Positions 38,157-59,400 of a DNA stretch of 64,000 nt are shown here, in pieces. A program made the translations under genes and the position numbers. Below the pieces are notes generated by a model that searched no databases, was not told the origin of the DNA, and was given only the letters and a program-made list of their open reading frames with translations. How positions within the stretch are numbered: the first letter of the stretch is position 1; each line of letters starts with the position of its first letter. Source of the stretch: Paenibacillus polymyxa (GTDB lineage Bacteria; Bacillota; Bacilli; Paenibacillales; Paenibacillaceae); the NCBI RefSeq assembly GCF_018614975.1, contig NZ_JAGGNR010000011.1, positions 1 through 64,000 on the forward strand, written 5' to 3'.

Positions 38157-38162
38157 TAGAGG

Positions 38163-38214: not shown

Positions 38215-38312
38215 TCCGGCTCAAAGTGAATCATAAAAAAGACAAAAAAACTTATTTTATATTGAAAATTTACATAATAGGTTATCAAACTGCAAAATAT
38301 TTAAAACAACAG

Positions 38313-38321
38313 TGGTATACT
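38313..38321 (+). promoter_or_regulatory. Putative extended -10 promoter of the pab-NRPS cluster
   Basis: TGGTATACT gives an extended -10 box (TGN-TATACT) in the AT-rich leader about 415 nt before pabA. The -35 region (TGCAAA at 38291) is weak. The remaining leader to 38735 has no gene and no T-box or other riboswitch I can recognise. Confidence 0.35.
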
Positions 38322-38735: not shown

Positions 38736-39341
38736 ATGATCGTCATGATTGATAACTTTGATTCTTTCACGTATAACCTTGTGCAGTACTTCGCTGATTT
38801 GGGTGAGAGCGTAAACGTGTATCGTAATGATGCTATTACGGTAAAAGAATTGGAAGAGATATCGCCGAATTATATCGTGATTTCTCCAGGTCCATCTAAT
38901 CCGTCTAACGCCGGAGTTTCTCTTGAAGTGATTCGATATTTTGCTGGAAAGATTCCAATTCTTGGTGTATGTCTTGGCCATCAGGCTATTGCTCAGGCAT
39001 TTGGAGGCAAAGTGGAATCAGCAAAGCATCTTATGCATGGCAAAACCTCGGATATCACGCATGATGGCAAAATGTTATTTCAAGGTATGCCTGCCGTGCT
39101 GAACGTGGCAAGATATCACTCGCTTATTGTCAATCCGGATCTCCCGGAAGAATTGGAAGTCACCGCATGGTCCAGCGATGGGGAAGTGATGGGACTTCGT
39201 CATAAGAAATGGAGTATAGAAGGGGTTCAGTTCCATCCGGAATCCATTATTACACCATCCGGCAAACAGATTCTGGCTAACTTTCTGCAGAACTGTTCTT
39301 ATCAAAAGACAGGTTCCGACTCAAGTTACGTTACGCTCTAA
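38736..39341 (+). CDS. pabA: Aminodeoxychorismate synthase, glutamine amidotransferase subunit (PabA)
   Basis: A 201-aa class I glutamine amidotransferase that releases ammonia from glutamine for the partner PabB. The start at 38736 (MIVMIDNFDSFTYNL) follows GGAGGG by about 11 nt. The oxyanion loop SPGPSNPSNAG, the nucleophile Cys in GVCLGHQAI near residue 74, and the His/Glu in VQFHPESI near 165 are all present. TrpG has the same fold; the PabA call rests on the next gene, a PabB-PabC fusion 28 nt downstream. Placement at the head of an NRPS operon suggests it supplies a precursor for the peptide rather than folate. Confidence 0.88.
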   Translation: MIVMIDNFDSFTYNLVQYFADLGESVNVYRNDAITVKELEEISPNYIVISPGPSNPSNAGVSLEVIRYFAGKIPILGVCLGHQAIAQAFGGKVESAKHLMHGKTSDITHDGKMLFQGMPAVLNVARYHSLIVNPDLPEELEVTAWSSDGEVMGLRHKKWSIEGVQFHPESIITPSGKQILANFLQNCSYQKTGSDSSYVTL

Positions 39342-39369
39342 ACTAACTTCTCAAGGAGGTATTCTTTGA

Positions 39370-41166
39370 ATGAATCAATCAGATGTCCATCCGTATATCT
39401 TATTTGATTTTGTAGGCGAGGATCGTTGTAAACAGCGCAAAATCTTCAGGAATCCTGTTGAAGTCATTAAAGCTACATCCATTGAAGAGGTAAAACCAGC
39501 GTTGCGGCAGATTCAGGATGCTGTTGATAAGGGATATTATGCAGTAGGTTATGTGTCCTATGAAGCTGCGCCGGCTTTCGATCCCGCTTTTCGAGTTCAT
39601 TCAGATGTGGCTTTACCGCTCATATGGTTTGGTATTTTTGAAGGGTATGATACAGATTATGCATCTTCATCTGATGAATATCGGATCTCAGGATGGGAAC
39701 CAACGGTTACAGAGAAGACCTATCATCAGAATATACATAAAATTCACGAGGCCATCGCGCGGGGAGACACCTATCAGGTCAATTATACGATGCGTCTTCG
39801 GTCGGAATATGAGGGTGACCCTTACGCTTTCTATACAAAGCTATGTGATGCACAACAGGCGGATTACTCAGCCATGCTGCAACTCGGTGATATTAGTATT
39901 TTAAGTGCTTCACCTGAATTGTTTTTCAAAAAGAATGGAAATCAACTGGAGACTCGTCCGATGAAAGGAACAGTGAAACGGGGGTTCTACCAGGAACAGG
40001 ACGACGAATTAGCTGACTGGCTGTATCAATCCCCCAAAAATCGGGCTGAAAATGTGATGATTACGGATTTACTTCGGAATGATCTTAGTGTAATTGCCGA
40101 GACGGGAAGTGTGCATGTACCGAGACTTTTCGATATTGAGAAATATTATACTCTGTTTCAAATGACCTCTACCGTTACAGCAAATACCAGGACAAACATA
40201 CAGTTGGAGGATATGTTCGCAGCACTTTTTCCCTGTGGTTCCATCACTGGAGCACCTAAAATCAGCACAATGGACTTAATATATGAACTGGAAGATACGC
40301 CAAGGGAGATTTATTGCGGATCGATCGGCATGTTGAGTCCGGATGGTTCATCCATTTTTAATGTAGCGATTCGGACGGTGTGGATTGATCATCAGCGTAA
40401 TCAGGCTGAATATGGTGTGGGTGGGGGCATCACCTGGGATTCGACAGCTTCGGATGAATATGCAGAGGCCAAAACAAAAGCGTTGATGCTAACGGAACAA
40501 AAGCCATATTTTGAATTGTTGGAATCGCTTCGATTAGAGAACGGGCAGTATTTTCTCTTGGAGAGGCACCTTGACCGGATGATGGATTCTGCATCCTATT
40601 TTAACTTTGAGGCGATTAGAGAGGATATTCATAATCAACTGACTGCTTATGCCAGCAAACATTCAACCGGCCTGCATAAGGTCAGAGTTTTGTTATCTCC
40701 ATTAGGACAAATTTCGGTTGAGAGTACGCCTCTTACTGAAACAAAAGAAACCCAGACGGTAGCTCTCGCGAAATCACCGATCTCTTCCAGTGAGCGTTTT
40801 TTATATCACAAGACAACGTATCGGGACATGTACGACGTTCATCGTATGGCGTGTGGAAATGGCTATGATGTTCTGCTGTGGAATGAGCAGAGGGAGCTTA
40901 CTGAATTCACTACAGGAAATGTTGTCATTGAGCAACAGGGTGAAAAATATACTCCACCTAGAGATAGGGGATTATTAGCAGGCACATTACGAAATCAACT
41001 CCTGTATGACGGAGTTCTTGAGGAAAAGGTATTAACATACAGAGACATCATCGAAGCAACAAATATATGGCTCATCAATAGTGTCCGTGGGTGGATCCGC
41101 GTTGAAGTTTCACAGGAAAGTCTGGACCATTCGTTACATGAACTCACCATTACCTCAGGGCAGTGA
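39370..41166 (+). CDS. pabB: Aminodeoxychorismate synthase/lyase fusion (PabB-PabC), makes p-aminobenzoate
   Basis: A 598-aa bifunctional enzyme. Residues ~1-375 form the chorismate-utilising domain: RPMKGTVKRG near residue 198 has Lys where anthranilate synthase has Ala (PIAGT), the hallmark of aminodeoxychorismate synthases. ENVMITDLLRNDLS near 221, GSITGAPKI near 292, and GVGGGITWDS near 352 are core motifs. Residues ~380-598 form a class IV aminotransferase-fold lyase. HKTTYRDMYD near 479 supplies the PLP Lys, and TTGNVVIEQQGEKYTPP and RGLLAGTLRN form the cofactor pocket. Together with PabA it should convert chorismate to p-aminobenzoate. AAGGAGG precedes the ATG. Its stop overlaps the region just before the first NRPS gene, so the genes are coupled. 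Confidence 0.92.
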   Translation: MNQSDVHPYILFDFVGEDRCKQRKIFRNPVEVIKATSIEEVKPALRQIQDAVDKGYYAVGYVSYEAAPAFDPAFRVHSDVALPLIWFGIFEGYDTDYASSSDEYRISGWEPTVTEKTYHQNIHKIHEAIARGDTYQVNYTMRLRSEYEGDPYAFYTKLCDAQQADYSAMLQLGDISILSASPELFFKKNGNQLETRPMKGTVKRGFYQEQDDELADWLYQSPKNRAENVMITDLLRNDLSVIAETGSVHVPRLFDIEKYYTLFQMTSTVTANTRTNIQLEDMFAALFPCGSITGAPKISTMDLIYELEDTPREIYCGSIGMLSPDGSSIFNVAIRTVWIDHQRNQAEYGVGGGITWDSTASDEYAEAKTKALMLTEQKPYFELLESLRLENGQYFLLERHLDRMMDSASYFNFEAIREDIHNQLTAYASKHSTGLHKVRVLLSPLGQISVESTPLTETKETQTVALAKSPISSSERFLYHKTTYRDMYDVHRMACGNGYDVLLWNEQRELTEFTTGNVVIEQQGEKYTPPRDRGLLAGTLRNQLLYDGVLEEKVLTYRDIIEATNIWLINSVRGWIRVEVSQESLDHSLHELTITSGQ

Positions 41167-41183
41167 AAGGAGAAACCGTTCGA

Positions 41184-44100
41184 ATGTCATTTCATACTAG
41201 CCTCCAACGTTTTATAAGACATGAGCTCCCGGTTCAACAACTTTCAATATCCATGCGGGCAATGACCACTTCCGGGACTTGGAATGAACATTGGACCCAA
41301 CCGACTGCTTCCAGCGTATTGAAAAAACAGGAACATTTCAAATATGGTCAGAGAGCGAAGTTGTGGGATTCACAACCAATTCTTTCGGCGGGGGAACCAG
41401 CAATTCTGATAGGCAAACCACTTGATTATGCAGGACATCCTAAGACACTCATTGAGGCTTTTGATCTGACCGTCAGGAATCATCCAAAGAAGAAATTGCA
41501 TTATAAGATGGAAAATGGGGAAGTCCGAATATCAGATTATATGGAATTGTCTCAGAATGCTGAACGCATCCTTCAAGGACTGAATCAACAAGGTGTCCGG
41601 CCAGGAGAATCCGTCATTTTGCAAATTGAACGCATAGACCACTTAGTAGCTGTACTCTGGGCTTGTATACTTGGCGGTATGAACCCAGCACCACTGAAGC
41701 CAGCCCTTCATTTGCCATCCGATCACGTGGATCACCACAAGCTGAAACAGGTGTGGAAGTTATTGAATTGTCCACTCATTGTAGGAGATTCCGCAGGTAC
41801 TTTCGAAGGGGAGGGCAAACGTGAAGAAGCGGTGATTTCGGTAAATGAGCTGCTGCGGCATAACTGTTCTCAGGAAAGGCACAGTAGTGACCCGCATGCG
41901 CCTGTCCTTACCCTCTTTACATCAGGGACAACAGGTACTCCGAAGTGTGTCCGGTATCAGAATCGCCAGATCCTTGCGAATATTATAGGCATCAAACAAC
42001 ATCTAGGCCTGACTTCTGAAGAGATTACCTTGAATTGGATGCCTCTCTATCATGCTGGTGGATTGTTAACCAATCATATCCTCGGAGTTGTGTTGGGCAG
42101 TGAACAAGTGCTAAGTTCCGTTGAGCGTTTTTTGGATTCCCCCACTTCGTGGTTGGAAGATATAGAGGAGCATCAAGTCACATTCACCTGGGCCCCTAAT
42201 TTTGCCTATGCACAGATGAATCGGCATGAAACCGTCCATGCCAGGCAATGGGACTTGTCATCTATTCGAACCATATTGAATGTAGGTCAGCCAATCTCAG
42301 CTCAGACAGGCAAAGAATTCCTTCATCAATTAGTTCCGTTTGGGCTTAGAGCTGATAGCGTTGTTCCTGCATATGGCATGACTGAGTTTTCGGGCAGTCT
42401 CTGCTTCAGCAGAACGTTTGATCATTCCGAGACAGGTGGAATTCAGCATATTGTTAAGGGGTCGTTGGATAGCAAAGTGATCTTTGCAGACTCCTCCAAT
42501 ACTGACGACACAATAGTCTTTGTCGAGATTGGAGAGGTGATTCCCGGCATAAGTCTGCGTATAGTAAATGATTGCAATGTTCCGCTTCCAGAAGCTCATG
42601 TAGGGAGAGTTCAACTCAAGGGAGATTCAATCATAACGGAATACTTCAAGAACAAGGAAGCAACTAACAACGTATTGACAGACGATGGATGGTTCGAATC
42701 AGGTGATCTCGGTTTTGTTAAAGGTGGAAAGTTGACATTAACAGGAAGAGAAAAAGATGTGCTGATCATGAACGGAAAAAATCTATACAACTATGAGATT
42801 GAAGCCGTGATGAAGCAAGTATACGGTGTTGATGCTGACTACGTGGCAGCAGCAGGAATATCTGGTGGAGAATCCGGCAATGATCAGCTGTTGTTATTTT
42901 ATACACCCCAGAATGACGACGAAGGCTTAGATCTGTTCGTCATTCAGGAGATGAGAGGTAACATATCAAGACAATTTGGCGTCAATCCGAGGTTTATCGT
43001 ACCGGTTAGCAAAAGGGAATTCCCTCGTACACCTACAGGTAAAATCCAGCGGCTACAACTTGTAGATTTACTTCTTGATGGCCAATTTGATGAAACACTC
43101 AACCGAATAGAATGTATGCTGCATGAACGTCAGCAGGCTCAGATGATGATGGAAGAAGAGGTTGCAGCAGCTTCTGTTGAACAGGCAACTCGGGTACAGG
43201 TGGAAGAAGAGGGTTCCGGGGGAGCACAGATCCAGCAGGGCAAGCTGTGCATTATTCACTACACATCAGAGCAGGATGATTGCCATGAGGCTTTGGTGTA
43301 CACCAAAGTACGTGAATATGTAAAGGAACACAATGTTCTTCTTGACCGAATTGAAGTGTACAGACAACCTCATGTGGGTGAAGGAGCATCGGTCTCTTCT
43401 GAGCACTATCCATTTCTTGAAAAAGCATTTCAATCGGTCTTGGGAGTAACCCAAGTGACCAACCATGATGATTTTTTTCAACTCGGTGGGGACTCCCTTC
43501 GCATGACTCGTCTGCTCGCCATGATTGCTTCAGAGTATAAGGTGCGTATTCCGGTACAGCGTTTTTTCAGACAAGCAACGATCAATGGAATTCTTCAGGA
43601 ATTGCAGAATGCGGAACCGTTGAAGAATCATATTCCTATCCCGGTACAGCAGCAACGAACAGAGAAACTTCCGCTTACATTGAAACAAAAAAGCCAATGG
43701 GTTCTGCACACGATTGCTCCAGAGAGCGCCTTTTATACCAATACTTTTTCAATTCACTTTACCGGTGTTTTTCATATATACAGACTTCAGAATGCTGTAC
43801 AAGCACTGATTATGCGGCATGAGGCCTTGCGTGTTCGCTACGGTATTCAAGATGGGGAACCTTATCAATATGTTACGGAGCTAGGATCTGAAATAGAAAT
43901 TAGACGGATAGATCTTACCCAGCTTCAGGAGAATGAAAGGCATGTTGGAATCAGGATGGAGATTGATCGGGAAGCAAACTTGCGGTTTGACCTTGTGAAC
44001 GATGCATGTCTTCGTATGTGCCTGATTGATTGCAGCCCGGACAAGCATATCCTGGTTGTGTCCATGCATCACATTATATCTGATGGCTGGTCAGTGGAGA

Positions 44101-44954
44101 TTTTTACCAACGAATTGGTGCAATTGTATAACTCGGAGTTGGGAGATTCGCAGCGAATGTTATCACCACTTTCTGTCTCCTACTCGGATTATGTGCTGTG
44201 GCAATCCTCCATGGAGCAGGGCAGTGATTCTCCCCTGTGGGAACTAAAAGAGTACTGGATCAATAAGCTAAACCGAACATTACCTATTATACAGGTACCC
44301 TGTGATTTTCCATATCCTGAGGCCAGAGCGTACAACGGAAATACGATCGAACGTATCGTAGATTCCCAGTTGACTTCCAGGACATTAGCGAAGGCAAACC
44401 GGTCAGGGGTTACGCTCTTTATGCTCTTATTCGCGGTGTATGGCTACCTAATCCATCGTTTTAGCAGACAGCCCTATATTCCCATTGGTACCGTAATGTC
44501 CAACAGGACCCGTGCCGAGGTGGAGGGTCTCATTGGATTTGTCGCGAATACCGTTATTTTATCCGTCGAGTTTAGTGAAGATATGACGTTTGATGATCTG
44601 CTGGAACAAGTTAAAGGAATGTCCCTGGATGCCTATCAACATCAGGAAGTACCTATAGAAATGCTGCTACCTGACCTTTCGTATCATACGGCACCGGGAT
44701 CAACACCGGGTTTTCAAGTCATGTTCACACTGCAAAATGAATTTACACACCAATATCAGCTTCAGGACGTATCTGTACAGTTGATGATTGAAGCAGGAAG
44801 TACTTCCAAGTATGACTTGATTCTACATGTATATGAAGAGTCCGATATTCTTAGGCTGCGTATGGAATACAACACGGATTTGTACAGAATGGAAACCATC
44901 GAAAGGCTTCTTCAATTCTATATCACCATGCTGGAAGGGGTTGTTGAGCATTAA
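41184..44954 (+). CDS. NRPS loading protein: acyl/aryl-AMP ligase - carrier - condensation
   Basis: A 1256-aa protein that should adenylate a carboxylic acid starter, load it on its carrier domain and condense it with the first amino acid. The start at 41184 follows AAAGGAG by 11 nt; a GTG at 41163 is less likely. The ligase domain (about 55-650) has LFTSGTTGTPKC near 245, NWMPLYHAGGL and PAYGMTEFSG, and TGREKDVLIMNGKNLYNYE. This pattern is of fatty/aryl-acyl-AMP ligases rather than amino-acid A domains. After a Glu/Gln-rich linker, the carrier Ser lies in FFQLGGDSLRMTR near 767. The condensation domain (about 830-1255) has MHHIISDGWS near 960. Next to pabABC, p-aminobenzoate is the prime substrate candidate (inference); a fatty acid is the alternative. 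The frame ends at a TAA exactly where the next module begins. Confidence 0.88.
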   Translation: MSFHTSLQRFIRHELPVQQLSISMRAMTTSGTWNEHWTQPTASSVLKKQEHFKYGQRAKLWDSQPILSAGEPAILIGKPLDYAGHPKTLIEAFDLTVRNHPKKKLHYKMENGEVRISDYMELSQNAERILQGLNQQGVRPGESVILQIERIDHLVAVLWACILGGMNPAPLKPALHLPSDHVDHHKLKQVWKLLNCPLIVGDSAGTFEGEGKREEAVISVNELLRHNCSQERHSSDPHAPVLTLFTSGTTGTPKCVRYQNRQILANIIGIKQHLGLTSEEITLNWMPLYHAGGLLTNHILGVVLGSEQVLSSVERFLDSPTSWLEDIEEHQVTFTWAPNFAYAQMNRHETVHARQWDLSSIRTILNVGQPISAQTGKEFLHQLVPFGLRADSVVPAYGMTEFSGSLCFSRTFDHSETGGIQHIVKGSLDSKVIFADSSNTDDTIVFVEIGEVIPGISLRIVNDCNVPLPEAHVGRVQLKGDSIITEYFKNKEATNNVLTDDGWFESGDLGFVKGGKLTLTGREKDVLIMNGKNLYNYEIEAVMKQVYGVDADYVAAAGISGGESGNDQLLLFYTPQNDDEGLDLFVIQEMRGNISRQFGVNPRFIVPVSKREFPRTPTGKIQRLQLVDLLLDGQFDETLNRIECMLHERQQAQMMMEEEVAAASVEQATRVQVEEEGSGGAQIQQGKLCIIHYTSEQDDCHEALVYTKVREYVKEHNVLLDRIEVYRQPHVGEGASVSSEHYPFLEKAFQSVLGVTQVTNHDDFFQLGGDSLRMTRLLAMIASEYKVRIPVQRFFRQATINGILQELQNAEPLKNHIPIPVQQQRTEKLPLTLKQKSQWVLHTIAPESAFYTNTFSIHFTGVFHIYRLQNAVQALIMRHEALRVRYGIQDGEPYQYVTELGSEIEIRRIDLTQLQENERHVGIRMEIDREANLRFDLVNDACLRMCLIDCSPDKHILVVSMHHIISDGWSVEIFTNELVQLYNSELGDSQRMLSPLSVSYSDYVLWQSSMEQGSDSPLWELKEYWINKLNRTLPIIQVPCDFPYPEARAYNGNTIERIVDSQLTSRTLAKANRSGVTLFMLLFAVYGYLIHRFSRQPYIPIGTVMSNRTRAEVEGLIGFVANTVILSVEFSEDMTFDDLLEQVKGMSLDAYQHQEVPIEMLLPDLSYHTAPGSTPGFQVMFTLQNEFTHQYQLQDVSVQLMIEAGSTSKYDLILHVYEESDILRLRMEYNTDLYRMETIERLLQFYITMLEGVVEH

Positions 44955-47412
44955 GCTGTCGAGTCTGAATACATTGCCTGATACCGAGAGGCGTATACTT
45001 CTGGAGCAATTCAATGATACGAAGACCACATACCCGCGAGAAGCAACACTGATCAGTTTGTTTGAGGAGCAGACGAAACGATCCAGTGAACGGGTTGCCT
45101 TGCGTTATGAACATACGGAGATGACGTATGCATCATTAAATAGTAAGGCCAACCGCTTGGCGTTATATCTTCGACAGCAAGGCGTGAAACCAAATCAGGT
45201 TGTAGGCATTTTGTTTTCACGTTCACCCGGTATGGTTATCAGCATTCTTGCCGTACTTAAAGCAGGTGGAGCTTATATGCCGATTGATCCCGAGTACCCG
45301 AAGGAACGTATTCAATACATGCTTGAAGATAGCAAAGCGCAATTCTGTATTACGGAAGAGCAGGAGTATCTGCCTGAAGAAATGTCGATTAAGGCAATCG
45401 TTCCAGACCTGCTGGATGACGATGGGATAGAGGGCAACTTCGCTACAAATCCGAAACAAGTGAATCGACCATCGGATTTGGCTTACATCATCTACACATC
45501 AGGATCAACGGGCAAACCAAAAGGGGTCATGATTGAACATTCCAATGTGGTCAGGCTGCTTTTTAATGACCGAAACTTGTTTGACTTCAGTGAAGAAGAT
45601 GTGTGGACACTGTTCCATTCATTCTGTTTTGATTTTTCGGTATGGGAGATGTATGGGGCGTTATTGTATGGTGCCAGATTAATTATAGTTCCTCTGAATG
45701 TGACAAGAGAGCCAGCACAATTCTTATCATTACTACAGAAGGAACAGGTCACCATTTTGAACCAAACTCCGACTGCCTTTTACCGAATGGCTAGATTGGA
45801 AGTACAGTCAGACTTGGATACACCGCTGGCTGTTCGAAAGGTGATCTTCGGTGGAGAAGCTCTTCAACCTATACAACTACTGGAATGGAAGAAGAAATAT
45901 CCTCAAGCTCAACTAATTAATATGTATGGAATTACGGAAACCACGGTACATGTGACATATAAGGAAATGGAATGGGATGATATCCAAGGTAAAACAAGCA
46001 ACATCGGGAAACCCATCCCTACGCTTCAAATTTATATTCTCGATGAACAGCGGGAATTGGTTCCGATCGGTGTGGAAGGGGAGATTTATGTTGGCGGTGA
46101 AGGCTTGGCTAGGGGATACCTGAACCGAGAAGAACTGACCGCCGAACGGTTTGTTCCCCATCCCTTTGCCCCCTCGCAGCGGTTATATCGAACTGGAGAT
46201 CTCGCCCGCTGGCAGATGAACGGTGAACTTGAATATTTGGGAAGGATCGATCACCAAGTGAAGATCAGAGGTTTCCGAATTGAGCTTGGTGAAATCGAAA
46301 CCAGACTTTTGGAGATAGGTGGAATACAGCAAGCAGTTGTTACGGTGAGGGAAGGGGATGCAGGAGAGAGCGTTCTTTGTGCATATTATGTCTCTGAACG
46401 ACTTCAGCAGAGTAAAGATTTACGAACAAAGCTGTCTCACCATCTGCCGCAGTATATGCTGCCTGCTCACTATATTCAAATGAAGGCCTTGCCAATGACA
46501 CTGAGCAACAAAGTCGATATCAGAGCGCTTCCCGCTCCTATCGACAGTGTGACTCCAATGGATGTTACCGATTTGGTTATGCCAAGCCATGAACTGGAAT
46601 GGCAGATGCTGAACATTTGGCAGGAGATGTTGGATAACCGCAATATGGGGGTAGAGTGTGATTACTTTGAGCTTGGCGGAGACTCCATTCGTGTAATTGA
46701 ACTGATCAGCCGAATGAACAGAGAGCTTGGACTTCATATCCAAATTGCTGATATGTACGATTATCCAACGATTCGCGAACTGGCTAAACATCGTACTTCT
46801 CTTCATGCACCCGATAACGTCCGGAACGAGATTGAGATGGAGTTATTACAGATGCGTACAGAGTGGCTGGCGAACCCGACATTACGAGCCTTGTTACCCT
46901 CCAATGTGGAAGACGTGTATCCCATGAGCGATATTCAGCAGGGAATGGTGTTCCATTACATGAAAAATGAAGGTCTGGGTGTATATCACGATCAGTTTAT
47001 ATATCAGATTCATGAGCATCGAATTCAGGCGCTGAATCTTCGCAAAGTCATGATGGAACTTATAAACAGGCATCCGATTCTGCGTACCGGTTTCAATATT
47101 TCTGATTTTCCCGTACCTGTCCAATATAGTTGTGAACGTATACATTTTGATATTCAGGAGGTCCTACTGGATAGTCTGGATAGCGAATCGATAGAACAGG
47201 AAATTCGGAAATACATGGAGCTTGACCGGAAGCGGCCATTTGATATCCAGCATGCTCCCCTCTGGCGTCTGGTGATTTTCACCTCCCAGGAGGAGTCATA
47301 TGTGGGGTGGATCTTTCATCATGCCATTCTGGATGGATGGAGCGTTGCCGTCTTTATGTCGGAATTACTGAATTTGTACGGTGCTCTCAAAGGAGGGGAA
47401 GTCAGTGCCTGA
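44944..47412 (+). CDS. NRPS module: adenylation (Thr) - carrier - N-lobe of condensation
   Basis: A frame of about 822 aa lying +1 to the preceding gene. No ATG is available near the junction; TTG at 44944 follows GGAAGG by 5 nt and overlaps the previous stop. A sequencing or natural frameshift joining both frames is equally possible. The A domain (about 5-510) has YTSGSTGKPKGV near 184 and FDFSVWE. Reading the ten pocket positions by eye gives DFWNIGMVHK, the established threonine code. The carrier Ser lies in YFELGGDSIRVIE near 579. A condensation N-lobe follows (YPMSDIQQGMVFHYM, with the catalytic FHHAILDGWS near 792), then the frame stops at TGA 47410-47412 about 28 residues later, in mid-domain. 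Confidence 0.8.
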   Translation: MSIKLSSLNTLPDTERRILLEQFNDTKTTYPREATLISLFEEQTKRSSERVALRYEHTEMTYASLNSKANRLALYLRQQGVKPNQVVGILFSRSPGMVISILAVLKAGGAYMPIDPEYPKERIQYMLEDSKAQFCITEEQEYLPEEMSIKAIVPDLLDDDGIEGNFATNPKQVNRPSDLAYIIYTSGSTGKPKGVMIEHSNVVRLLFNDRNLFDFSEEDVWTLFHSFCFDFSVWEMYGALLYGARLIIVPLNVTREPAQFLSLLQKEQVTILNQTPTAFYRMARLEVQSDLDTPLAVRKVIFGGEALQPIQLLEWKKKYPQAQLINMYGITETTVHVTYKEMEWDDIQGKTSNIGKPIPTLQIYILDEQRELVPIGVEGEIYVGGEGLARGYLNREELTAERFVPHPFAPSQRLYRTGDLARWQMNGELEYLGRIDHQVKIRGFRIELGEIETRLLEIGGIQQAVVTVREGDAGESVLCAYYVSERLQQSKDLRTKLSHHLPQYMLPAHYIQMKALPMTLSNKVDIRALPAPIDSVTPMDVTDLVMPSHELEWQMLNIWQEMLDNRNMGVECDYFELGGDSIRVIELISRMNRELGLHIQIADMYDYPTIRELAKHRTSLHAPDNVRNEIEMELLQMRTEWLANPTLRALLPSNVEDVYPMSDIQQGMVFHYMKNEGLGVYHDQFIYQIHEHRIQALNLRKVMMELINRHPILRTGFNISDFPVPVQYSCERIHFDIQEVLLDSLDSESIEQEIRKYMELDRKRPFDIQHAPLWRLVIFTSQEESYVGWIFHHAILDGWSVAVFMSELLNLYGALKGGEVSA

Positions 47413-50400
47413 TCCGTTAAAAACGAGCTACAAAGATTATGTTATAGATCAGATGGCCCAATCTAGAAATTCGTCCATTATAGAGTATTGGCGTGAAGAA
47501 CTGGCGGATTATCGAAAATATTCATTCCCGGAACAGTCCGAGATTCATCATGGCAATTCAGTAGCCAACTCAACAGTGACTCTCCTCCCATCGGAACTGT
47601 ACACCCAGTTAAAAGAAGCGGCACGTAATCAGCGTGTTACGGTTAAATCCTTGTGTCTGTCTGCATTCGTCACTTCATTATATATGTTGTCCTATGAGGA
47701 TGATATCCTGATCGGGCTTGTCGAGAATGGACGTCCTGTCCATGAGGATGGAGCACGCATATTGGGCTGTTTCCTAAATACCGTTCCTATGCGCATGCAA
47801 TTTGACTCTCTGGTGAACTGGGGGGACATTACTCAAAATGTATATCATAAACAAGCCGCACTCAAAAAGTATGGCCGGTTGTCCCTTGTTCAGATTCTAA
47901 ATGCAATTGGGGAGCAAAGCAGCCGAGAAAATCCGCTATTTGATATCGCCTTTAACTATATTGATTTTCATGTGTATGAGTCTGTGGAAAAAGGAATGTT
48001 TGAATTTAAATCTTACAGCTATGAGAAAACAAACACTCTCCTTGATTTTAGTATTTCAGTAACTCTTGGTGAGTTGTCCGTCAAGATGGTGTCATCTTAT
48101 CCAACAGCTTTCACAGATCGGCTGCTTGACGTATATCTGAGGGTTCTTGGTTGCTTGATTGCCAAACCTGAACAGAAGATCGATACAGTCGATATTATCA
48201 CGGAGGAAGAATACACGTTACTGGGAACTTACAATGATTCAACAGCCGAATACCCTTATGAGGCAACCGTTGTAGAACTGCTGGAGCAGCAGGTTATACA
48301 GCAATCTGAGCGAACCGCAATTGTCATGAGGGAGGAGCAGTTATCATACCGAGAATTCGGTATGCGAGTTGATCAGTTTGCAATTCAGTTGCTCGAATCC
48401 GGTGTTGAACCTGGACAGAATATTGGACTTATTTCAAGGCGGTCCATAGAAATGATAACGGCCATTTTCGCCATTTTGAAAGCAGGATGTACCTATATTC
48501 CGCTGGATCCGGAGTTCCCGACTGAGCGAATTCGTACCATACTTGTAGATAGTGATGTGGCTGTACTTATTGCTGAGAAAGATCTGTTCATCAGCGGCTA
48601 TGAAGGCAAGCAGATTAATCTGGTCAAGCAAGAACAGATGCAGAGTGACGGCGAGCGGCAAGCTGTGGACATGTTCACGAAATGCCACAGATCCGCTGAA
48701 GATGTGGCCTATATCATGTATACATCGGGGTCTACAGGTAAACCGAAGGGTGTACAAACGACACACCGTAACATTGTGAAAACCGTAATCAATAACGGTT
48801 TTATGGATATTCATGAAACAGACCGGATGTTGCAACTCTCCAACTATGCATTTGATGGTTCAACATATGAAATATTCGGTGCTTTACTCAATGGAGCTAC
48901 GCTAGTGCTGATTCCCAAGGAAACCGTCCTCAATGTGTCGGAGCTTGCTGATACGCTGGAGCGTGAACGAATCACTTCGGCTTTTATGACTGCTGTACTG
49001 TTCAATGCCGTTGTCGAGTGGGATGTTCAATGTTTGAAACATGTGAGAAGGCTTTTCTTTGGCGGAGAGGCTGGATCCAAAAAGCATGTGGAGAAGGCTC
49101 TGCAGGTTCTGGGGAATGATCGGATTGCTAACGGATATGGTCCGACGGAAACGACCGTTTTTGCAGCGACTTATCTGGTCAATCATCGTTTGCTGGATTA
49201 TAACACTGTTCCCATCGGAAGACCTGTTCACAATACCCAGGCTCATGTAATGAATCGAAAAGGACAACTTCAACCTGTTGGAGTACCTGGCGAGTTGTAT
49301 ATTTCCGGAGATGGGCTTGCGCAAGGTTACCTGCATCAGGCTGAGTTGACCGAAGAACGTTTTGTAATCGGCTCTGCTGGAGAAAGAATGTACAGAACAG
49401 GCGACCTCGTTCGCTGGCTGCCGGATGGAAACCTCGAGTACATGGGAAGGTTGGATCAGCAAGTGAAGATTCGTGGAAATCGGATTGAACTTGGCGAAAT
49501 TGAGAGCAGGCTATCCAGGATTGAATCGATTCAGGATGCTGTGGTCATGACAGAGAAGGATGAGCAGGGACATACCTATTTATGCGCGTATATCGTCCCG
49601 AGTGATAACAAAACTCCTGTGTTGGATTGGAAAAAAGAGCTGAGGCAGAGCCTGCCTGAATATATGGTTCCCAATACGTTCGTTACACTGGAAGCCTTCC
49701 CCATGACACTGAACGGTAAGCTCGACCGGAAGGCACTTCCCAAGCCCACGAGAAGACAGACCAACCATTTCGTTGCTCCGGCTAATGTGTTTGAAGAGAA
49801 ATTAGCACGTATCTGGGAAGAGATTCTGGATATACAGAGCGTCGGAGTAGAGGAGCATTTCTTCGAAATTGGAGGGCATTCACTTAAAGCTATGATGCTT
49901 GTGGCCAGAGTGCAGAAGGAAACCGGCGTAAAGGTTTCACTACAGGATGTATTCATCATGCCTACGATTCGGGAGATGGCCATGTGGATCATGGCAGCAC
50001 GCTCGACAGACCACCCTGGAGAAGAACTTGTGCCCATACCCTACAGGGACACGTACCCGGCGTCTTCTATCCAACAACGGATGTACATTGTTCAGCAAAT
50101 GGAAAATGCAGGTGTAAGCTACAATATGCCTTTCCTGCTTCGGTTAAATGGCAAGCTGGATGTGAATGCCTTGGAGAGATCAATGCAGATGCTGATTCAG
50201 AGACATGAGGCATTGAGAACTTCATTCGAGTTACACCATGGTGAACTGCGGCAGCGTATTCACGGACCTGATCAGATATCTCTTGAACCGTTGCGCCTCG
50301 AAAAAGCCCCATTAGCAGAGACGGAAGAATCGGCTATCCAGACGTTTGCTGAACAATTCATCCAGCCATTTGATCTGGGAGAAGCTCCTTTGTTCCGAAG

Positions 50401-53400
50401 AGGTTTACTTCGGCTTAACGAGGAGTGTCATGTGCTACTGCTTGACCTGCACCATATTATTTCGGATGGACGATCCATAGAGATCCTGATATCCGACTGG
50501 GTTCGGTTATATCAGGGGCAGTACCTTTCGGACCTGAGTGTGCAGTACAAGGATTATGCTGTCTGGGAACAGGAGAAATATCTTCAACAAGAGGCATATA
50601 ACAAAAGTCAGGAGTACTGGTTGTCCTTGTACAAAATCGAAGTCCCTGTTCTTGAAATACCAACAGATCATCTGCGCTCGCCGATCCGCCGTTTTGAGGG
50701 AAGTCGTGTGAACTTAACGTTAGAGTCTGCTCTCGTGAGTCAATTAAAAGATGCAGCAATGACCAATCAACAGACCTTATTTATGCTTATGATGGCATCC
50801 TATCAGATTCTGTTGTCCAAATATGCGGCGGCAGAAGATGTTATAGTGGGCACTCCTTTCACATGCAGAGATACCATCCAGCATGAACAAATGGTAGGCA
50901 TGTTCGCCAACACGCTGGCACTTCGAAGTGAACCCAAGGCAGAACTGACGGTAAGTGTATATCTGGAGAAGATGAGAGAAATTACGCTGGCAGCCTATCA
51001 ATACGGCCGATACCCACTGGAAGACTTGATAGATCGCTTGTCACTGCCGTTTGATTCAAGCCGACATCCATTGTTCGACACGATGTTTATGCTACAGGAT
51101 TCGGCAACAGCACAGATGCATATACCGGGACTTGAGATCGAGTATGCAGAGTGGGATCATCATGCATCAAAATTTGACATGACATGGGTCTGCACATTAT
51201 CCGAAGATGATATGACGTTATCGGTTGAATATCGAACTGATCTGTGGGAGTCACATACCGTAAAACGGATGTTACAACATTATGTACATTTGCTGCAGCA
51301 GATCGTAACTGTCCCGGAACTGAAAATTGGGGAGCTGGAGCTTGTAACCGAATCTGACATTGCACAGATAAATGAATGGAATAACAGCGATGCTGATTAT
51401 CCTCAAGATGCTTCTGTGGCTGAGTTGTTTGAGCAGCAGGTTGAGCTCGGCAGCGCGAATCCGGCTGTCGTGATGGACGGGGACCGGGTTACGTATCAGG
51501 AGTTAAATCATCGCGTGAATCGTCTTGCACGACACCTTATTTCACAGGGCGTTCAGCCTGGGCAACGTGTCGGGCTCATCATGGATCGCTCCATTGAGGT
51601 CATTGTTGCAATGCTTGCCATTGTCAAGAGCGGGGGGGCATACGTCCCTATTGACCCGAGCTTTCCAGCGGACAGGAAGACATACATGCTGATGGATAGC
51701 GGGGCAAGATGGCTGATTGCAGACCATCCTGATCAGATCCCCAACTATAAGGGTGAAGCTCTGATTTTTAATGAAAATGTCTGGGCACACGAATCCAATC
51801 AGAACCCGGTTTTCATCCGTAATAATGTGAATAACAGCGCATATGCCGAGTCTTCTGGACCGGAAGATCCCTTATATGTCATGTACACCTCTGGTTCCAC
51901 CGGAACCCCAAAAGGGGTAATTACGACACACCGCAATGTGATCAAGACGGTAATTCATAATGGTTACGTGGATATCACCCCTGACGACCGCCTGCTACAG
52001 ATATCTAATTATGCTTTTGACGGATCGACTTTCGACATCTATGGTGCCCTGTTACACGGTGCTGAACTTGTTCTTTTGAAACGCGAAGAGGTGCTGGATG
52101 GGAGTGCGCTCGCCAAGGCCATTCGCGAACAACATATCACGATCGCCTTCATGACAACGGCACTATTTAACACACTGGTAGATCTGGATCCAGCATCCTT
52201 GAACGGGACTAGGAAAATTCTCTTTGGCGGTGAGAAAGTATCAGCGACACATGTCAAAAAGGCTGTTGATCTGCTTGGAAAGCATAGACTTGTACATGTA
52301 TATGGCCCGACAGAAACGACGGTATTTGCCACATTTTACTCCATCGTTTCTGGTGAATACATTCCAATTGGTCAGCCAACGAATAACACAAAAGTGTATG
52401 TGCTGAACCATGAAGGCAAGCGATTGCCTGTTGGTATTCCCGGCGAGTTGCATATAGGTGGACAAGGACTTGCCCAAGGATATTTGGGACAACCGGAGCT
52501 CACCCGTGACAAATTTATAGCTAGCCCATTTATTCCGGGAGAACGTCTATATCGGACTGGAGATCTGGTTAAATGGCTGCCGGATGGAAATCTGGAATTC
52601 ATTGATCGAATAGACCATCAAGTGAAGATTCGTGGCAATCGGATCGAACTAGGGGAAGTAGAGGGACGCCTGCGTAAGCTGTCAGGTATCCATGAAGCAA
52701 TAGTGATGGCCGATCGTGACGATCAGGGTCACTCCTATCTATGTGCGTACACTCTACTTCAGGATGGAGAAGCCAAGCAGTCCTTTCAAGATCTGGTAAC
52801 GATGTGGAAGCAGGAACTCAAGCAACAAATGCCGGAATATATGGTTCCAACTGTCTTTTCCATTTTGAGTGAGATACCGCTTACTGCGAATGGAAAGATT
52901 GATCGGAAGAAACTTCCGAAGCCGACGATTGTACGAGGGCAGCAATATGTTCCAGCAGAGAATCCGGTCCAAAAGAGCTTGATTGAGATATGGGAAAGTG
53001 TTCTAGGCATTAAGAAGATAGGAATACAGGATCATTTCTTTGAATTGGGCGGACACTCACTGAAAGCCATGTTGCTAGTAGGCAAGATTCATCAGGAATT
53101 TGATGTCAGACTTACCTTGCTGGATATATTCCAGACCCCAATTCTTCGGGACATGGCTGGATGGATTCTGAAGGCCGCTCGGAATCAATACAGAGCCATT
53201 GAGCCGGCTCCAGTGATGCAATCATATCCTGTTACTTCGGTTCAGAAACAGATTTATTACGCCCAACAATATGAAAACAGTGGAACAAGTTATAACATGC
53301 CGATGTTATTTGAAATCTCAGGAGCATTAGACACGGCTCGTCTGGAAGCATGTTTTAGACGGATCATCGCACGCCATGAAGCCCTGCGGACATCATTCAA

Positions 53401-56400
53401 TATGGAATATAGCGAATTGATTCAACGCATTCATTCGATAGATGAAGTGAAGTGGAAGCTTGAAAGGTGGACTATGGATTCATTGGAAGCCTCGATCCAG
53501 GAATCTGATGGAACTGAAACAGATCCAATGTCTGGCGTGATGTCCACTTTTGTTAAGCCGTTTGATTTGGCAGAAGCACCGCTGATCAGGGCAAGTGTAA
53601 TTGAATTCGATAGGGAACGGTATGTACTGGCGCTGGATACACATCACATCGTGTCTGACGGAGTATCTACTCATCTGATATATGATGAACTGTTTAATCT
53701 TTATCAGGTACGGGCACTTGATCCGATCCGTGTTCAATACAAGGATTATGTGATGTGGAAGCAGAAACAGCAGATGAGCCGTACCTATGAGGAAGCACAG
53801 CAGTTCTGGTTGGATCAGTACTCGGGATTTGAGAGTTCCGCAGAACTTCCAATGGATCGTGCACGTCCTGCCATCAGATCGTACCGGGGGGCATCCTATA
53901 CATTTGGTTTGCCAAGTAAGAAGGTACAGGAGTTGAAAAGAGCAGCTGCCGGTTACGGGGCTACTCCATTCATCCTTCTTTTATCGGTGTATGGCCTGAT
54001 GTTGTCTAAATATACGGGTGATGAGAACATCACCATAGGGGCACCGATTGCCGGACGAGAACATGTAGATGTAGAGCCGACTGTGGGGATGTTTGTAAAC
54101 ACGCTGCCTTTGAAGCTTAATCCAGCTGCTGATCTGACGGTTGGTGAATATATCCAGCATGTCAAAAAATATATGATGGCAGTACATGAACGTGGTATGT
54201 ATTCTCTCAGTGATCTATTAGACAAACTTCATTTTTCTTTTCAGCCGAACCGCAACCCCTTATTTGACACACTGTTTGTACTGCAGGATATGACGCTTCC
54301 CGTCAAAACACTTCAAGATATATCTGTTCGCAAGTTGGATTGGCATGGACAGCAGGCCAAATTCGATATGTCCTGGGTATGGCATGAAGATGGGGATGAA
54401 CTCGTGGCTGAGGTTGAATACAGTTCAGATTTATGGGACCGGGTTACCGTCGAACAAATGACTCGTCATTATGTTTATTTGCTGGAACAACTATTGAATA
54501 GCATGGATACGAAACTGCGTGAGCTGGAGCTGCTTACCCCGCTAGAACAAAAGTATTTTAGAGAGCTTAATAAAACCGATGCTGAATATCCAAGAGATTG
54601 GACTGTTACGGATGCATTTGAATCCATGGTATCAGAACAACCAGAACACGAGGCACTCCTGTACGGCACAGAGAGTGTGACTTATGGACAACTGAACGAA
54701 CACGTAAACCGGATGACGGCATTACTCAAGCGACGTGGAATTAAGCCTGGTGACTACGTCGGACTGTTAACACATCGTAAACCGGAGATGATCATTGCCA
54801 TCCTGGCGATATTAAAAGCAGGAGGAACGTATGTCCCTCTCGATCCCAAATTCCCTGAAGACCGACTAACATACATTTTACGGGACAGTGGAGCGCAGTG
54901 GCTCATCATGGAGCAGAATCAGACCCTTGATTCCTACACGGGAACAATCATCCCCCTGCTCGAACCACAAGTTTATGCAGAAGAGAGTTCAATACAGACA
55001 CCAATCTCCTATTCAGCAGAGCAGCCTGTCTATGTCATGTATACCTCAGGATCTACCGGGATGCCCAAAGGTGTGATAACGAGTCACCGCAATGTAGTGA
55101 AAACCTGTATCAATAACGGATTTGTTGAAATTGGGCGAGAGGATCGAATGTTACAGTTGTCCAATTATGCATTTGATGGCGCCACATATGAAATTTTTGG
55201 AGCACTTCTTAATGGCGCAACACTCGTGCTTATGCCTAATCAACATGTTCATGATGTGTCGTATCTTACAAGCACATTGAGACAAGAGAGGATCACGAGC
55301 CTCTTCATGACAACTTCCCTGTTTAACACGGTAGTTGATTATGACGTACACAGTCTGCGTAGTATGAGGAAGCTGTTTATTGGCGGCGAAGCTGCCTCGG
55401 TGAATCATGTGATTAAAGCGTTGGATGTACTGGGAGAACATCGGATTGTAAATGGTTATGGCCCAACCGAGACGACCGTTTTTGCAGCAACGTATTCCAT
55501 TGATGAGAGAGTAAGGGAAACCGGGCGTGTTCCCATTGGCCGAGCCATTCATAATACAAGGCTCTATGTATTGAATACATGGGGCAAGCTCCAACCTGTG
55601 GGAGTTCCTGGAGAATTGTACATCGGAGGCGAGGGTCTGGCTGCCGGATATCTGGGACAACCGGAGCTGACAGAAGAGAGATTTCTGGCCTGGCACATGG
55701 AAGGGGAAGACAGGGTCTATCGTACAGGAGACCTCGTAAGATGGTTGAAGGATGGCACCATTGAGTACTTGGGTAGATTGGATCAGCAAGTGAAAATCCG
55801 TGGAAATCGGATTGAGCTGGCAGAGATCGAGGAGCACATCCTTGCTCTAAAAGGGGTCAACGAAACTGTAGTTACTGCACATCGTGATGACCAAGGGCAT
55901 TCCATGTTGGCGGCGTATGTTGTAATTGACCCTGCAAGTGTACTTGCCTTGAATGAAACGAAGAATGAGCATCAAGCGGAGAACTGGAGAAGAATCTTAA
56001 AAGAAACACTTCCTGAGTATATGATTCCATCCATATTCATCGAGCTCTCATCCTTACCGCTTACACGGAACGGGAAGCTGGACCGAAAAGCTCTGCCAAA
56101 ACCTGACCTTGCTAGACTGTCTTCAAATTATGTGGCTCCTTCAACACATACGGAGAAGGAACTGGCACAATTATGGACTGAAGTTCTGGATCTCACCCAA
56201 GCGGGCTTGCATGATCATTTCTTCGAAATGGGCGGGCATTCACTAAAAGCAATGGTTCTCTTAGCGAAGCTTCAGGAGAAATGGGCCATCAAATTAAGCA
56301 TGCCGGATTTGTTTAATGCTCCAACGCTGCAACAGATGGCCTCCTTGATTGACCAAGGGGATAAGCAGAATCATACTCGTATCCCGCGTGTCAAAGAACA

Positions 56401-59400
56401 AGACGATTATCCCGTGTCGTCGGCACAGAAGAGACTATATCTGGTGGAACAGTTCGAGGATACCGGGACAAGTTACAATATGCCCATGGTACTGAGGATA
56501 AACGGGAAACCCGATGTGATCCGTCTGGAGCTTGCGCTGAAAGGACTTATTCATCGGCATGAATCACTAAGAACCTCCTTTAGAATGGTTGATGGTGAGC
56601 TACGACAGCACATTCATGACCTGAAGGACATGCATTGGAAACTGGAACTTAGAGCCGAACCTGAAACGCTTGCTGGTCTTGAGAGGAATGAACAGCTGGC
56701 TCGGTATATGGGCACATTTGTCCGGCCCTTCGATCTTGGATGTGCTCCCCTTATGAGAGCAGGGTTATGTGTACTTTCAGACATAGAATATGTGTTGGTC
56801 TTGGACATGCATCACATTGTTTCGGACGGAGTGACGACCGGAATTCTGTATCAGGATTTTATTCAGCTCTATCAGGGACATCCTCTTGATGAGATGACAG
56901 TTCAATATAGGGATTACACAGTGTGGATGAGTGAACAGAAGAACAAGTCGGCCTACCTGACGAGTGAAGATTACTGGCTTAAACGGTACGAGAAAGACAT
57001 CACTGTATTGGACATCCTCACAGAGGGTCGTCGCCCAAGCCGGCGACAATTCACAGGTTCTTCCCATACGTTTGAACTGAGTCCTCAGCTGAGTGGCGCA
57101 GTGAAACAGTTGGCACAACAGACAGATGCAACACTCTTCATGGTGATGTTGGCAGCGTATAACATTCTTTTGTCCAAGTACACGGGGGAAAAAGATATTG
57201 TTGTGGGCATTCCGTTTGCGGGGAGGACTCATACGGATATCTCTTCCGTTGCAGGTATGTTCGTTAACACATTGGCGCTGAGACAAGAATTGTGTGGTGA
57301 TCTCCGGATTCACGAGTGGATCGGTCATGTGCGCAGGGACACGTTGCTGGCTTATGAACATGGAGAGTACCCATTGAATGAACTTATTGAGAAGCTGCAA
57401 ATCGCAAGAGATCCAGAGCGCAATCCGTTATTTGACACCATGTTTGTTCTACAGGATGCCAAACCCCGGACGGTAGAACTGCAAGAGTTGCATATTGAAC
57501 CTCTGGATTGGACGAGTAACACTTCTAAATTCGATATGACTTGGGTAGTTCACGAGAATCAGGAATCTCTTAAACTGACCATAGAATATGCGACAGACCT
57601 TTACGAACATTCTCAGATGGAAAATATGGCGCTTCATTATGAGCATGTGTTAAGACAAATATCCACCTCTCCGGACATATTACTGGACGAGATCAGGCTG
57701 ATCACTCCCTCGGAAGAGCAGGAGATCCTGGAACAGTTCAACGACACTTACGCAGAGTATCCGCGTGATCGTACGATTAGCCAGCTGTTTGAAACCCAAG
57801 CATCGCTTCGTCCCCATCATACGGCGTTGCACTTTTATGGGGAGACGCTATCTTACCAGGAGCTTCACCAGAAGGCTTGTCAGCTTGCCAGCTATCTTGA
57901 GCAGAGCGGCTTAAGCCGTGGAGATGCTGTCGGCTTGTTGGCAGACCGTTCGATTGACATGATTGTGTCGATCTTGGGAATCTTGCGAGCAGGAGGCGTA
58001 TATGTTCCGCTGGATCCATCCTATCCACAAGAGAGAATGATCTACATGCTCGAACACTGTAATGCAAGTATGCTCGTTGCTCCATCGGATAGACCTCTCC
58101 CTGGGTTCAAAGGGTTCGTGGTTCCATTGGAAGAGTCCAGTCGAACTCTATTAGAGAAAAACACATTATCCGTTCAATACGATGATAATCCAACGACATT
58201 ACCGGATGAAGCGACCATGCCAGCGTACATTATGTATACTTCAGGATCGACCGGATTACCGAAAGGTGTGGTCACTACACACCGAAATGTCATAAAGACA
58301 GCGATGAATAATGGATTTATCCATATCCGTGAACAGGATCGGATGTTACAGCTCTCCAACTATGCCTTTGACGGATCAACTTATGAGATCTTCGGTTCAT
58401 TATTGAACGGGGCAACGCTTGTACTGATCAGCAGAGAGGACATGCTGGATATCAACAAGCTTTCCTCAATTATGAAGGGGCAACGGATCACATCTGCCTT
58501 TGTAACTAGTGTACTGTTTAATGCGCTGGTCGATCATGATGTAACCTGTCTGCAACATGTGCATCGATTATTCGTTGGAGGAGAGGCACTTTCCAAATCT
58601 CATGTCATGCAAGCTCATCAATATCTGGGAGACGACCGGATCGCGAATGGGTATGGTCCGACCGAAACAACTGTTTTTGCAACGACATATAATGTTAGGC
58701 GTAATCTGGCAGGTCACAGTTCAGTTCCTATTGGAAGACCCATTCATAATACGAAAGCCTATATTCTCAATGCGCAAGGCCATCTTTTACCTGTGGGTGT
58801 AGCCGGTGAACTGTACATTTCCGGTGAGGGTGTAGCAGAGAAATATGTTGGGGATCCGGATCTGACGCTGAACAAGTTTCTGGAAGATCCATTCTGTCCC
58901 GGTCAACGAATGTACCGGACAGGGGACAGAGTCCGCTGGATGTCTGATGGCTGTATAGAATTTCTTACACGGATCGATCATCAGGTCAAAATTCGCGGAC
59001 ACCGAATTGAACCGGGAGAGATTGAGTCTAGGCTGATACAACATTCTGACGTACAGGAAGCGGTCGTTGTTCCCCGTCAGGACAATACAGGACATTATCT
59101 GTGTGCTTATATCGTTTCATCGGAAGGATTCCAAGAACAAGAGCTCAGAAAGTACGTTCAGCAGAGTTTGCCCGAATACATGGTGCCGTCGTATTTTGTA
59201 TCGATCGCCAAGCTCCCGGTAACGCGTAACGGCAAGCTGGATCGAGGAGTTCTCCCGGCACCGGATCTGAACATCATAAAAGGGGATTACCGTGCACCTG
59301 TAACTCAAGAAGAAGAAATATTGGCCCAAGTCTGGTCAGAAGTACTGGGTGTGGAACGTGTGGGAATCGACGACAACTACTTTGTCCTCGGAGGGGATTC

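What the first reader, a model, noticed from the sequence alone, without database searches (positions are those of the whole stretch)
38736..44954. pabA-pabBC heads an NRPS operon: possible p-aminobenzoate-capped peptide
Seen: PabA, a PabB-PabC fusion with the Lys of PMKGT, then a non-amino-acid AMP ligase-carrier-condensation protein, all tightly spaced. Known: PabB-type synthase plus PabC lyase makes p-aminobenzoate; A(L) loading domains start peptides with acyl or aryl acids. Inference: the loading domain activates p-aminobenzoate (or a derivative) and the product is an aryl-capped peptide beginning PABA-Thr. I know of no such Paenibacillus peptide, but cannot search.
Basis: partly seen in the sequence, partly recalled or inferred. 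Interest (0 to 1): 0.72.

Follow-up and report, generated by a model that had tools for sequence, protein, structure and literature searches.

The report
PABA-primed peptide synthetase, condensation domain split
A soil Paenibacillus carries an uncharacterised assembly line that probably starts a greasy peptide with p-aminobenzoate and threonine, and that is cut into separate proteins at two unusual points, one of them inside a single enzyme domain, an arrangement found in nine related genomes.

Summary
pabA, a pabB-pabC fusion and an AMP-ligase/carrier/condensation protein lie in tandem at 38736-44954 and head a four-protein NRPS line. The same order occurs in 9 of 394 family genomes searched, in three genera, with catalytic motifs kept. 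A separate folate operon exists, so these pab genes look dedicated. The loading ligase does not group with fatty-acyl-AMP-ligase-type rows. It forms its own clade (100/100); its nearest solved relatives are the keto-acid ligase StsA and McyG, and its pocket is invariant in 9 of 9. It lacks the published signature of albicidin/cystobactamid PABA A domains. PABA as starter therefore rests on gene linkage, not on a pocket match: likely, not shown. Predicted product: 4-aminobenzoyl-Thr plus eight aliphatic residues, one epimerised, released by a terminal C domain. The most unusual feature lies outside the given coordinates: one C domain is divided between two genes at its donor/acceptor lobe boundary (47389-47412), and the Thr module is divided between C and A. 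Both splits stand in 9 of 9. Engineered NRPSs are cut in the same linker regions.

The parts
38736..39341 (+). pabA: glutamine amidotransferase subunit of ADC synthase, GVCLGHQ and GVQFHPES intact
39370..41166 (+). pabB-pabC fusion: ADC synthase with Lys (RPMKGT) plus class-IV PLP domain, presumed ADC lyase (FLYHKTT)
41163..44954 (+). NRPS1: loading AMP ligase (about 41367-43124), carrier (43416-43598), full C domain (43662-44951)
44938..44954 (+). C][A gene boundary within the Thr module: NRPS1 stop overlaps NRPS2 start, +1 register in 9 of 9
44941..47412 (+). NRPS2: Thr A domain (45061-46122), carrier (46609-46791), N-lobe only of the next C domain (46906-47400). Start codon uncertain (TTG 44941 or 44944); the longest ORF opens at 44827
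47389..47412 (+). Split point inside a C domain: Shine-Dalgarno-like AAAGGAGGGG (47389-47398), GTG start (47405), TGA stop (47410-47412); an NTG start 8 nt before the end of the stop in 9 of 9
47405..60919 (+). NRPS3: C-lobe of the split C domain (to 48220), then A-T, three C-A-T, and a terminal E domain (59546-60874). The mechanical ORF opens at an earlier in-frame GTG, 47381
61003..64000 (+). NRPS4 (continues outside the window to contig position 74988): four C-A-T and a terminal C domain with HHAISDG, no thioesterase

Best explanation
A dedicated PabA/PabBC pair makes p-aminobenzoate, which the adjacent loading ligase adenylates and puts on its carrier. The first C domain joins it to Thr. 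Eight further modules add aliphatic (Val/Ile-type) residues; the fifth amino acid, the last one of NRPS3, is epimerised. A terminal C domain, not a thioesterase, releases the chain, perhaps by cyclising onto the Thr hydroxyl. The line is made as separate, translationally coupled proteins. NRPS1 and NRPS2 part between C and A. NRPS2 and NRPS3 part between the donor and acceptor lobes of one C domain, so the two lobes must assemble to catalyse and would also serve as the docking contact. Shown here: gene order, domain content, intact catalytic motifs, conservation, both split points. Inferred: PABA as substrate, product structure, lobe assembly, release mode.
For: Same gene order in 9 of 394 genomes. 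pabBC-like matches at E<=1e-100 in 18 of 394 genomes, including all nine; Fisher p 8e-14, not corrected for relatedness. Separate folate operon with dihydropteroate synthase, and a trpE operon, in this genome. Ligase clade 100/100 and pocket AGLWLVAGS in 9 of 9 against VGVWLGSSG-like rows; 19 columns fixed in the nine and absent from the other rows. A Trp that supports the benzene ring in McyG (PMC11253843 passage) has a counterpart here by my reading of the alignment. Split C: Pfam 1-165 ends NRPS2 and 162-454 opens NRPS3; HHAILDG kept in 9 of 9; same register, Shine-Dalgarno-like stretch and NTG start in 9 of 9. Both lobes look under purifying selection: omega 0.26 and 0.14 for G000-G082, 0.13 and 0.08 for G143-G108. 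A PABA synthase gene beside an NRPS goes with a lipopeptide whose NMR table lists PABA and Thr in Burkholderia gladioli (PMC7866175 abstract and passages).
Against: No ligase-substrate evidence. The nearest solved relatives take a keto acid or Phe; aryl-acid ligases are far. The albicidin-type PABA signature is absent from all nine cluster regions. Best ligase-only NCBIfam models are fatty-acid ligases, below cut-off. No lyase-specific model reaches its cut-off for the PabC part. The code DGYFFGGVFK had no hit in papers, so the eight later residues are guesses by resemblance. Two splits in the same +1 register could instead be ribosomal frameshifts, and in 4 of 9 genomes NRPS3 also has an earlier in-frame start. 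Lobe assembly was not modelled or tested.
Confidence: 0.66

Rival explanations
1. The loading ligase activates an alpha-keto, alpha-hydroxy or other carboxylic acid, as its relatives do, and the pab genes supply PABA for something else (release nucleophile, folate under self-inhibition).
For: Nearest solved relatives are StsA (alpha-ketoisocaproate) and McyG. The Met of the YGMTE motif is shared with StsA.
Against: No KR domain follows the ligase here, whereas the two keto-type relatives scanned both have one. The pocket differs at fixed positions. None of the 17 genomes that hold the other non-FAAL ligases of the tree is in the pabBC list at E<=1e-100. Against this point, two of the nine (G263, G268) also carry a keto-type-like ligase elsewhere, outside the tree.
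Confidence: 0.2
2. NRPS1/2 and NRPS2/3 are joined by programmed +1 ribosomal frameshifting, so the C domain is whole in a fraction of the product.
For: The next gene lies in the +1 register at both junctions in 9 of 9; the joined sequence aligns as a C domain of normal length.
Against: The stop codon varies at junction 2 (TGA 3, TAG 5, TAA 1). The stop lies 9 nt further on in 4 of 9 at junction 1. A Shine-Dalgarno-like stretch and an NTG start sit in place in 9 of 9 at junction 2. By eye I saw no slippery site kept in all nine.
Confidence: 0.2
3. The pab enzymes make PABA that a gene elsewhere modifies, and the cap is a substituted aryl acid.
For: The loading pocket is new and unassigned.
Against: No hydroxylase, N-oxygenase or methyltransferase among the genes that I scanned with Pfam from pabA to the thioesterase in this genome.
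Confidence: 0.1
4. The splits are decay or sequencing error, and the cluster is dead.
For: In any single genome the gene overlaps look like frameshifts.
Against: The same splits in nine genomes as far apart as 46.5% over the first 760 residues of NRPS1; purifying selection on both lobes.
Confidence: 0.03

Closest known systems
Haereogladiodin (hgdd) cluster, Burkholderia gladioli (PMC7866175, abstract and passages only)
   Same: A PABA synthase gene next to an NRPS; the NMR table lists PABA and then Thr in the lipopeptide
   Different: There a starter C domain adds a fatty acid first and PABA is listed after Tyr and Leu; here the ligase and carrier come first and no C domain precedes them
Albicidin, cystobactamid and lapcin PABA-NRPSs (PMC8837603 and PMC7966384, passages only)
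   Same: PABA built into a nonribosomal peptide
   Different: They use a recognisable PABA A-domain class with a DNA signature that is absent from all nine cluster regions here
StsA keto-acid loading module (6ulw/6ulx) and McyG loading domain (4r0m)
   Same: Closest solved sequences to the ligase, 410 and 333 bits; Trp in the pocket and Met after the YG/FG
   Different: No KR domain; against StsA, Ala for Ile at the pocket mouth, Tyr for Asp before the His, VGQ for GAE
Engineered type S and XUC NRPSs (PMC9315016, PMC10443035, PMC11546977, passages only)
   Same: Divided or joined in the C-A linker and between the C-domain donor and acceptor subdomains
   Different: Those are laboratory constructs, the type S ones held together by synthetic zippers; here both cuts are natural. 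I compared the regions, not the exact residues
DhbE/DhbF-type aryl-capped NRPSs (recalled)
   Same: Aryl acid loaded first, then an amino acid added by the first C domain
   Different: 2,3-dihydroxybenzoate ligases score only about 50-62 bits against this domain

Membership tests
Fatty-acyl-AMP ligases (FAAL) | Groups with FAAL-type sequences in a tree | tested here: not met
   The nine ligases form a clade 100/100 apart from four FAAL-type rows, labelled so by their recalled HDMG motif and not by function; solved entries named fatty-acyl or fatty-acid AMP ligase reach at most 124 bits against 410 for StsA. NCBIfam fatty-acid ligase models match below their cut-offs
StsA-type keto-acid loading modules | Ligase followed by a KR domain | tested here: not met
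   No KR in NRPS1; KR present in both keto-type relatives scanned, from L061 and L059
StsA-type keto-acid loading modules | Activates an alpha-keto acid | not testable with these tools
   Needs an enzyme assay
Albicidin/cystobactamid-type PABA A domains | DNA signature ARAARA-N11-TTYGCNRT-N7-AARGAR (PMC8837603, passage) | tested here: not met
   0 hits in the nine cluster regions, both strands
PabA/PabB (ADC synthase) | PabA Cys and His/Glu motifs, PabB Lys motif | tested here: met
   All three motifs in 9 of 9
PabC (ADC lyase) | Class-IV PLP domain with Lys motif; lyase-specific model | tested here: inconclusive
   Aminotran_4 and FLYHKTT in 9 of 9, but no lyase model reaches its cut-off, and a second motif was not matched by my pattern in G082
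Aryl-capped NRPS initiation | Loading domain activates an aryl acid | not testable with these tools
   Linkage only
Split NRPS (type S-like) | C domain divided between two genes at the lobe boundary | tested here: met
   Pfam 1-165 in NRPS2, 162-454 in NRPS3; boundary conserved in 9 of 9
Split NRPS (type S-like) | The two parts assemble and catalyse | not testable with these tools
   Needs biochemistry

The most novel reading that the evidence does not exclude
A natural counterpart of the engineered split NRPS: one condensation domain is made as two polypeptides, divided at the donor/acceptor lobe boundary, and the preceding module is divided at C][A. The small middle protein (A-Thr, carrier, donor lobe) then plugs into the next synthetase by lobe complementation. 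The line is primed with p-aminobenzoate by a new, separate class of loading ligase.
Probability: 0.5. Interest if true: 0.77.

Novelty: new variant of a known kind. Interest (0 to 1): 0.64.

Why it matters
If PABA is the starter, this is a PABA-primed peptide family in Paenibacillus with a loading ligase unlike the known PABA A domains, so mining by their signature would miss it. If the C domain works as two proteins, evolution has used the same regions as NRPS engineers to divide an assembly line, without zippers. That would offer a natural interface to copy and a direct test of how the two lobes cooperate.

Tried and rejected
Fatty-acyl loading was rejected by tree, pocket and PDB scores, although fatty-acid ligase models are the best ligase-only NCBIfam matches, below cut-off. 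A shared role of these pab genes with folate was made unlikely by a separate folate operon. Assembly error as the cause of the splits was rejected by nine genomes. Readthrough at the NRPS2 stop gives little: the next in-frame stop comes after 6-17 codons. An unusually strict synonymous constraint at the junction was not convincing: the 34-codon unchanged run at the end of NRPS2 against G082 is second to a 51-codon run elsewhere in that gene, and G143-G108 shows ordinary changes there. Promoter-like matches in 38100-48000 are fewer than in shuffles (12 against a mean of 22.0) and terminator-like ones about as many (11 against 8.0), so I use none; five Rfam matches upstream of pabA are all below gathering scores. 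Six specificity codes were searched in papers; only DGFFLGVVYK had a hit, one paper that I did not open. Four other C-lobe-only domains in this genome open their proteins; I saw no N-lobe match next to them, so I do not count them as the same thing. I did not run structure prediction: by my reading of its rule the usable alignment would have held three close sequences.

Searches behind the statement that I found no printed account: PABA with Paenibacillus peptides or NRPSs, P. amylolyticus/xylanexedens clusters, split C domains. They cover open-licence PubMed Central papers only; most listed papers were seen as listings; MIBiG was not available.

Full report
The genes. pabA (38736-39341), a pabB-pabC fusion (39370-41166) and an AMP-ligase/carrier/condensation gene (41163-44954) lie in tandem on the + strand. 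The PabB part passes the TIGR00553 cut-off (366.7 bits against 328.4), and its RPMKGT lines up with the TRPIKGT of a solved p-aminobenzoate synthase, 1k0e. PabA keeps GVCLGHQ and GVQFHPES, and the PabC part carries FLYHKTT; these motifs are present in 9 of 9 clusters. The PabC assignment is the weakest of the three. No lyase-specific NCBIfam model reaches its cut-off, solved lyases match only weakly, and a second PabC motif was not matched by my pattern in one of the nine (G082).

Dedicated or folate? This genome has two other PabB-like matches. One lies in a folate operon: chorismate-binding enzyme, glutamine amidotransferase, class-IV aminotransferase, dihydropteroate synthase (above its cut-off) and HPPK. 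Its PabB-like protein falls below both the TrpE and the PabB cut-offs, so the pab name there comes from context. The other is trpE, above its cut-off, among genes that I read by eye as a trp operon. So the NRPS pab genes are a second set. Each of the eight relatives also has weaker PabB/TrpE-like matches elsewhere; I did not read their surroundings, apart from a second, closer copy in G268.

How widespread? Searching the ligase part against 394 genomes of the family gave 162 with a match at E<=1e-40, most of them other ligase kinds. Nine, this genome included, have the close type (48% identity or more). Only two candidates per genome were scored in that call, so nine is a lower bound. A genus search that scored up to 13 per genome found the same five in 75. 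In 398 genomes drawn from the class, no close relative appeared beyond three already known (two scored per genome). In all nine the order pabA, pabBC, NRPS1, NRPS2, NRPS3, NRPS4 is the same; in G263 the contig ends inside NRPS4. Two of the nine match named contigs by length: Paenibacillus xylanexedens DE0301 (ligase part 93% identical) and P. amylolyticus 27C64 (86%). Close pabBC relatives (E<=1e-100) occur in 18 of 394 genomes: the nine and nine others. I mapped the surroundings in eight of those nine others and of the second copy in G268; G261 was not fetched. None of these stretches (7.8 to 35 kb) held relatives of NRPS1-4, apart from a weak 22% match of one ligase-like ORF in G256.

The loading ligase. 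Its best solved relatives are StsA (410 bits) and McyG (333 bits). Three polyketide-synthase entries reach about 152 bits, entries named fatty-acyl or fatty-acid AMP ligase at most 124, and 2,3-dihydroxybenzoate ligases about 50-62. In NCBIfam the best ligase-only models are fatty-acid ligases, below their cut-offs. In a tree of 31 rows (nine cluster ligases, StsA, and the 21 other ligases for which one search gave loci, out of many more matches) the nine form one clade with support 100/100, apart from the four FAAL-type rows. I named those four from the HDMG motif, which is recall. The nine pocket positions read AGLWLVAGS in 9 of 9, against forms like VGVWLGSSG in keto-type rows and DMISFGVLG in FAAL-type rows. 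Nineteen columns are fixed in the nine and absent from the other rows. A review states that StsA takes alpha-ketoisocaproate and that a Trp of McyG supports the benzene ring of its substrate (PMC11253843, passages); a Trp stands at what I read as the matching position here. The published DNA signature of albicidin/cystobactamid PABA A domains (PMC8837603, passages) has no hit in any of the nine cluster regions. So the ligase is neither a FAAL-type row nor a known PABA A domain. PABA as its substrate is inferred from gene linkage.

Modules and product. After the loading ligase there are nine A domains in this genome: Thr (DFWNIGMVHK, 9 of 9 genomes), then DGYFFGGVFK-like or DGFFLG(V/M)V(F/Y)K-like codes. 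I read the latter as Val/Ile-type from recalled codes such as bacitracin Ile; position 278 was misread by my pattern in a few rows. In the other genomes the pattern found 7 to 9 A domains. With complete NRPS4 genes, five of eight genomes show nine and three (G041, G108, G271) show eight; I did not settle whether those three have one module less or escape the pattern. NRPS3 ends in an E domain (EGHGRE, 9 of 9). NRPS4 ends in a C domain with an HH(A/G)xxDG motif in 8 of 8 complete copies. It has no thioesterase by Pfam in this genome and none by motif in the other seven. TetR, MFS and a separate thioesterase follow in this genome. The thioesterase is confirmed in G271 and G143, and the MFS gene in G268 and G041; I saw no thioesterase ORF just after the MFS gene in the latter two. 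The prediction is 4-aminobenzoyl-Thr followed by eight aliphatic residues, the fifth amino acid epimerised, released by the terminal C domain.

The two splits. NRPS2 ends with Pfam Condensation positions 1-165, and NRPS3 opens with 162-454. So one C domain is coded by two genes, cut in the loop between the last donor-lobe stretch (ELLxLY) and the YKDY of the acceptor lobe. Set end to end it has the length of the cluster's whole C domains (435 against 436-442 letters taken; three genomes). The same cut stands in 9 of 9 genomes. NRPS2 keeps HHAILDG. The next frame is +1, an NTG start (GTG in five, TTG in four) sits 8 nt before the end of the stop, and a purine-rich Shine-Dalgarno-like stretch lies just upstream. 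In four genomes, this one included, an earlier in-frame start also exists. The stop is TGA in 3, TAG in 5 and TAA in 1. NRPS1/NRPS2 part at the C-A linker, also in +1 register in 9 of 9, with the stop 9 nt further on in four of them; the NRPS2 start codon is uncertain. Substitution rates fit purifying selection on both lobes: omega 0.26 and 0.14 (G000-G082), 0.13 and 0.08 (G143-G108); the close pair G000-G148 gives 0.28 and 0.34 on few changes. Of 44 Condensation matches in this genome, this is the only N-lobe and C-lobe pair in adjacent genes that I saw; four C-lobe-only matches and one further N-lobe-only match also exist. In a quick tree without support values the joined domain groups with the C domain that follows the E domain, although I found no E domain in the Thr module; I cannot explain this.

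Meaning of the splits. Engineers split NRPSs at the C-A linker and, in some constructs, within the C domain between donor and acceptor subdomains (PMC9315016, PMC11546977, PMC10443035; passages). I found no report of a natural NRPS with its C domain so divided in the searches made, which cover open-licence papers only. Separate coupled proteins fit the start sites better than programmed frameshifting, but only proteomics can decide.

Verdict. The PABA cap is likely but unproven. The conserved split C domain is the part that would surprise a specialist most.

Noticed in passing
G000:C50:16369, C40:2635, C45:4797, C4:58397 (loci L098-L101): Four other NRPS proteins in this genome open with only the acceptor lobe of a C domain (Pfam from about position 185), with no N-lobe match seen next to them; one further N-lobe-only match lies at C4:298584-299114.
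   Followed up: partly
G000:C24 folate operon (L006): The folate-operon PabB-like protein has RPIAGT (Ala) while the NRPS PabB has RPMKGT (Lys); the former falls below both PabB and TrpE cut-offs.
   Followed up: partly
L086 (G256:C1:2472001-2492000), about 5116-7482 in the reverse-complemented map: Another pabA-pabBC pair sits in a different gene group with a ligase-like ORF and, by eye, glycosyltransferase-like ORFs.
   Followed up: no
G268:C1:1672931-1674793 (L062): A second pabBC-like gene (64% identical over part) without NRPS neighbours in the 20 kb read.
   Followed up: partly
window 33773-34810, - strand: A CAP12/Pycsar-type TIR effector-like protein by Pfam and PADLOC.
   Followed up: partly
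window 3708-8945, + strand: RHS-repeat protein with a pretoxin HINT domain.
   Followed up: no
window 22006-24351, - strand: nSTAND3 NTPase with a restriction-endonuclease-like N-terminus.
   Followed up: no
window 46906-48220: The split C domain groups with the C domain that follows the E domain in a tree without support values, though no E domain was found in the Thr module.
   Followed up: partly
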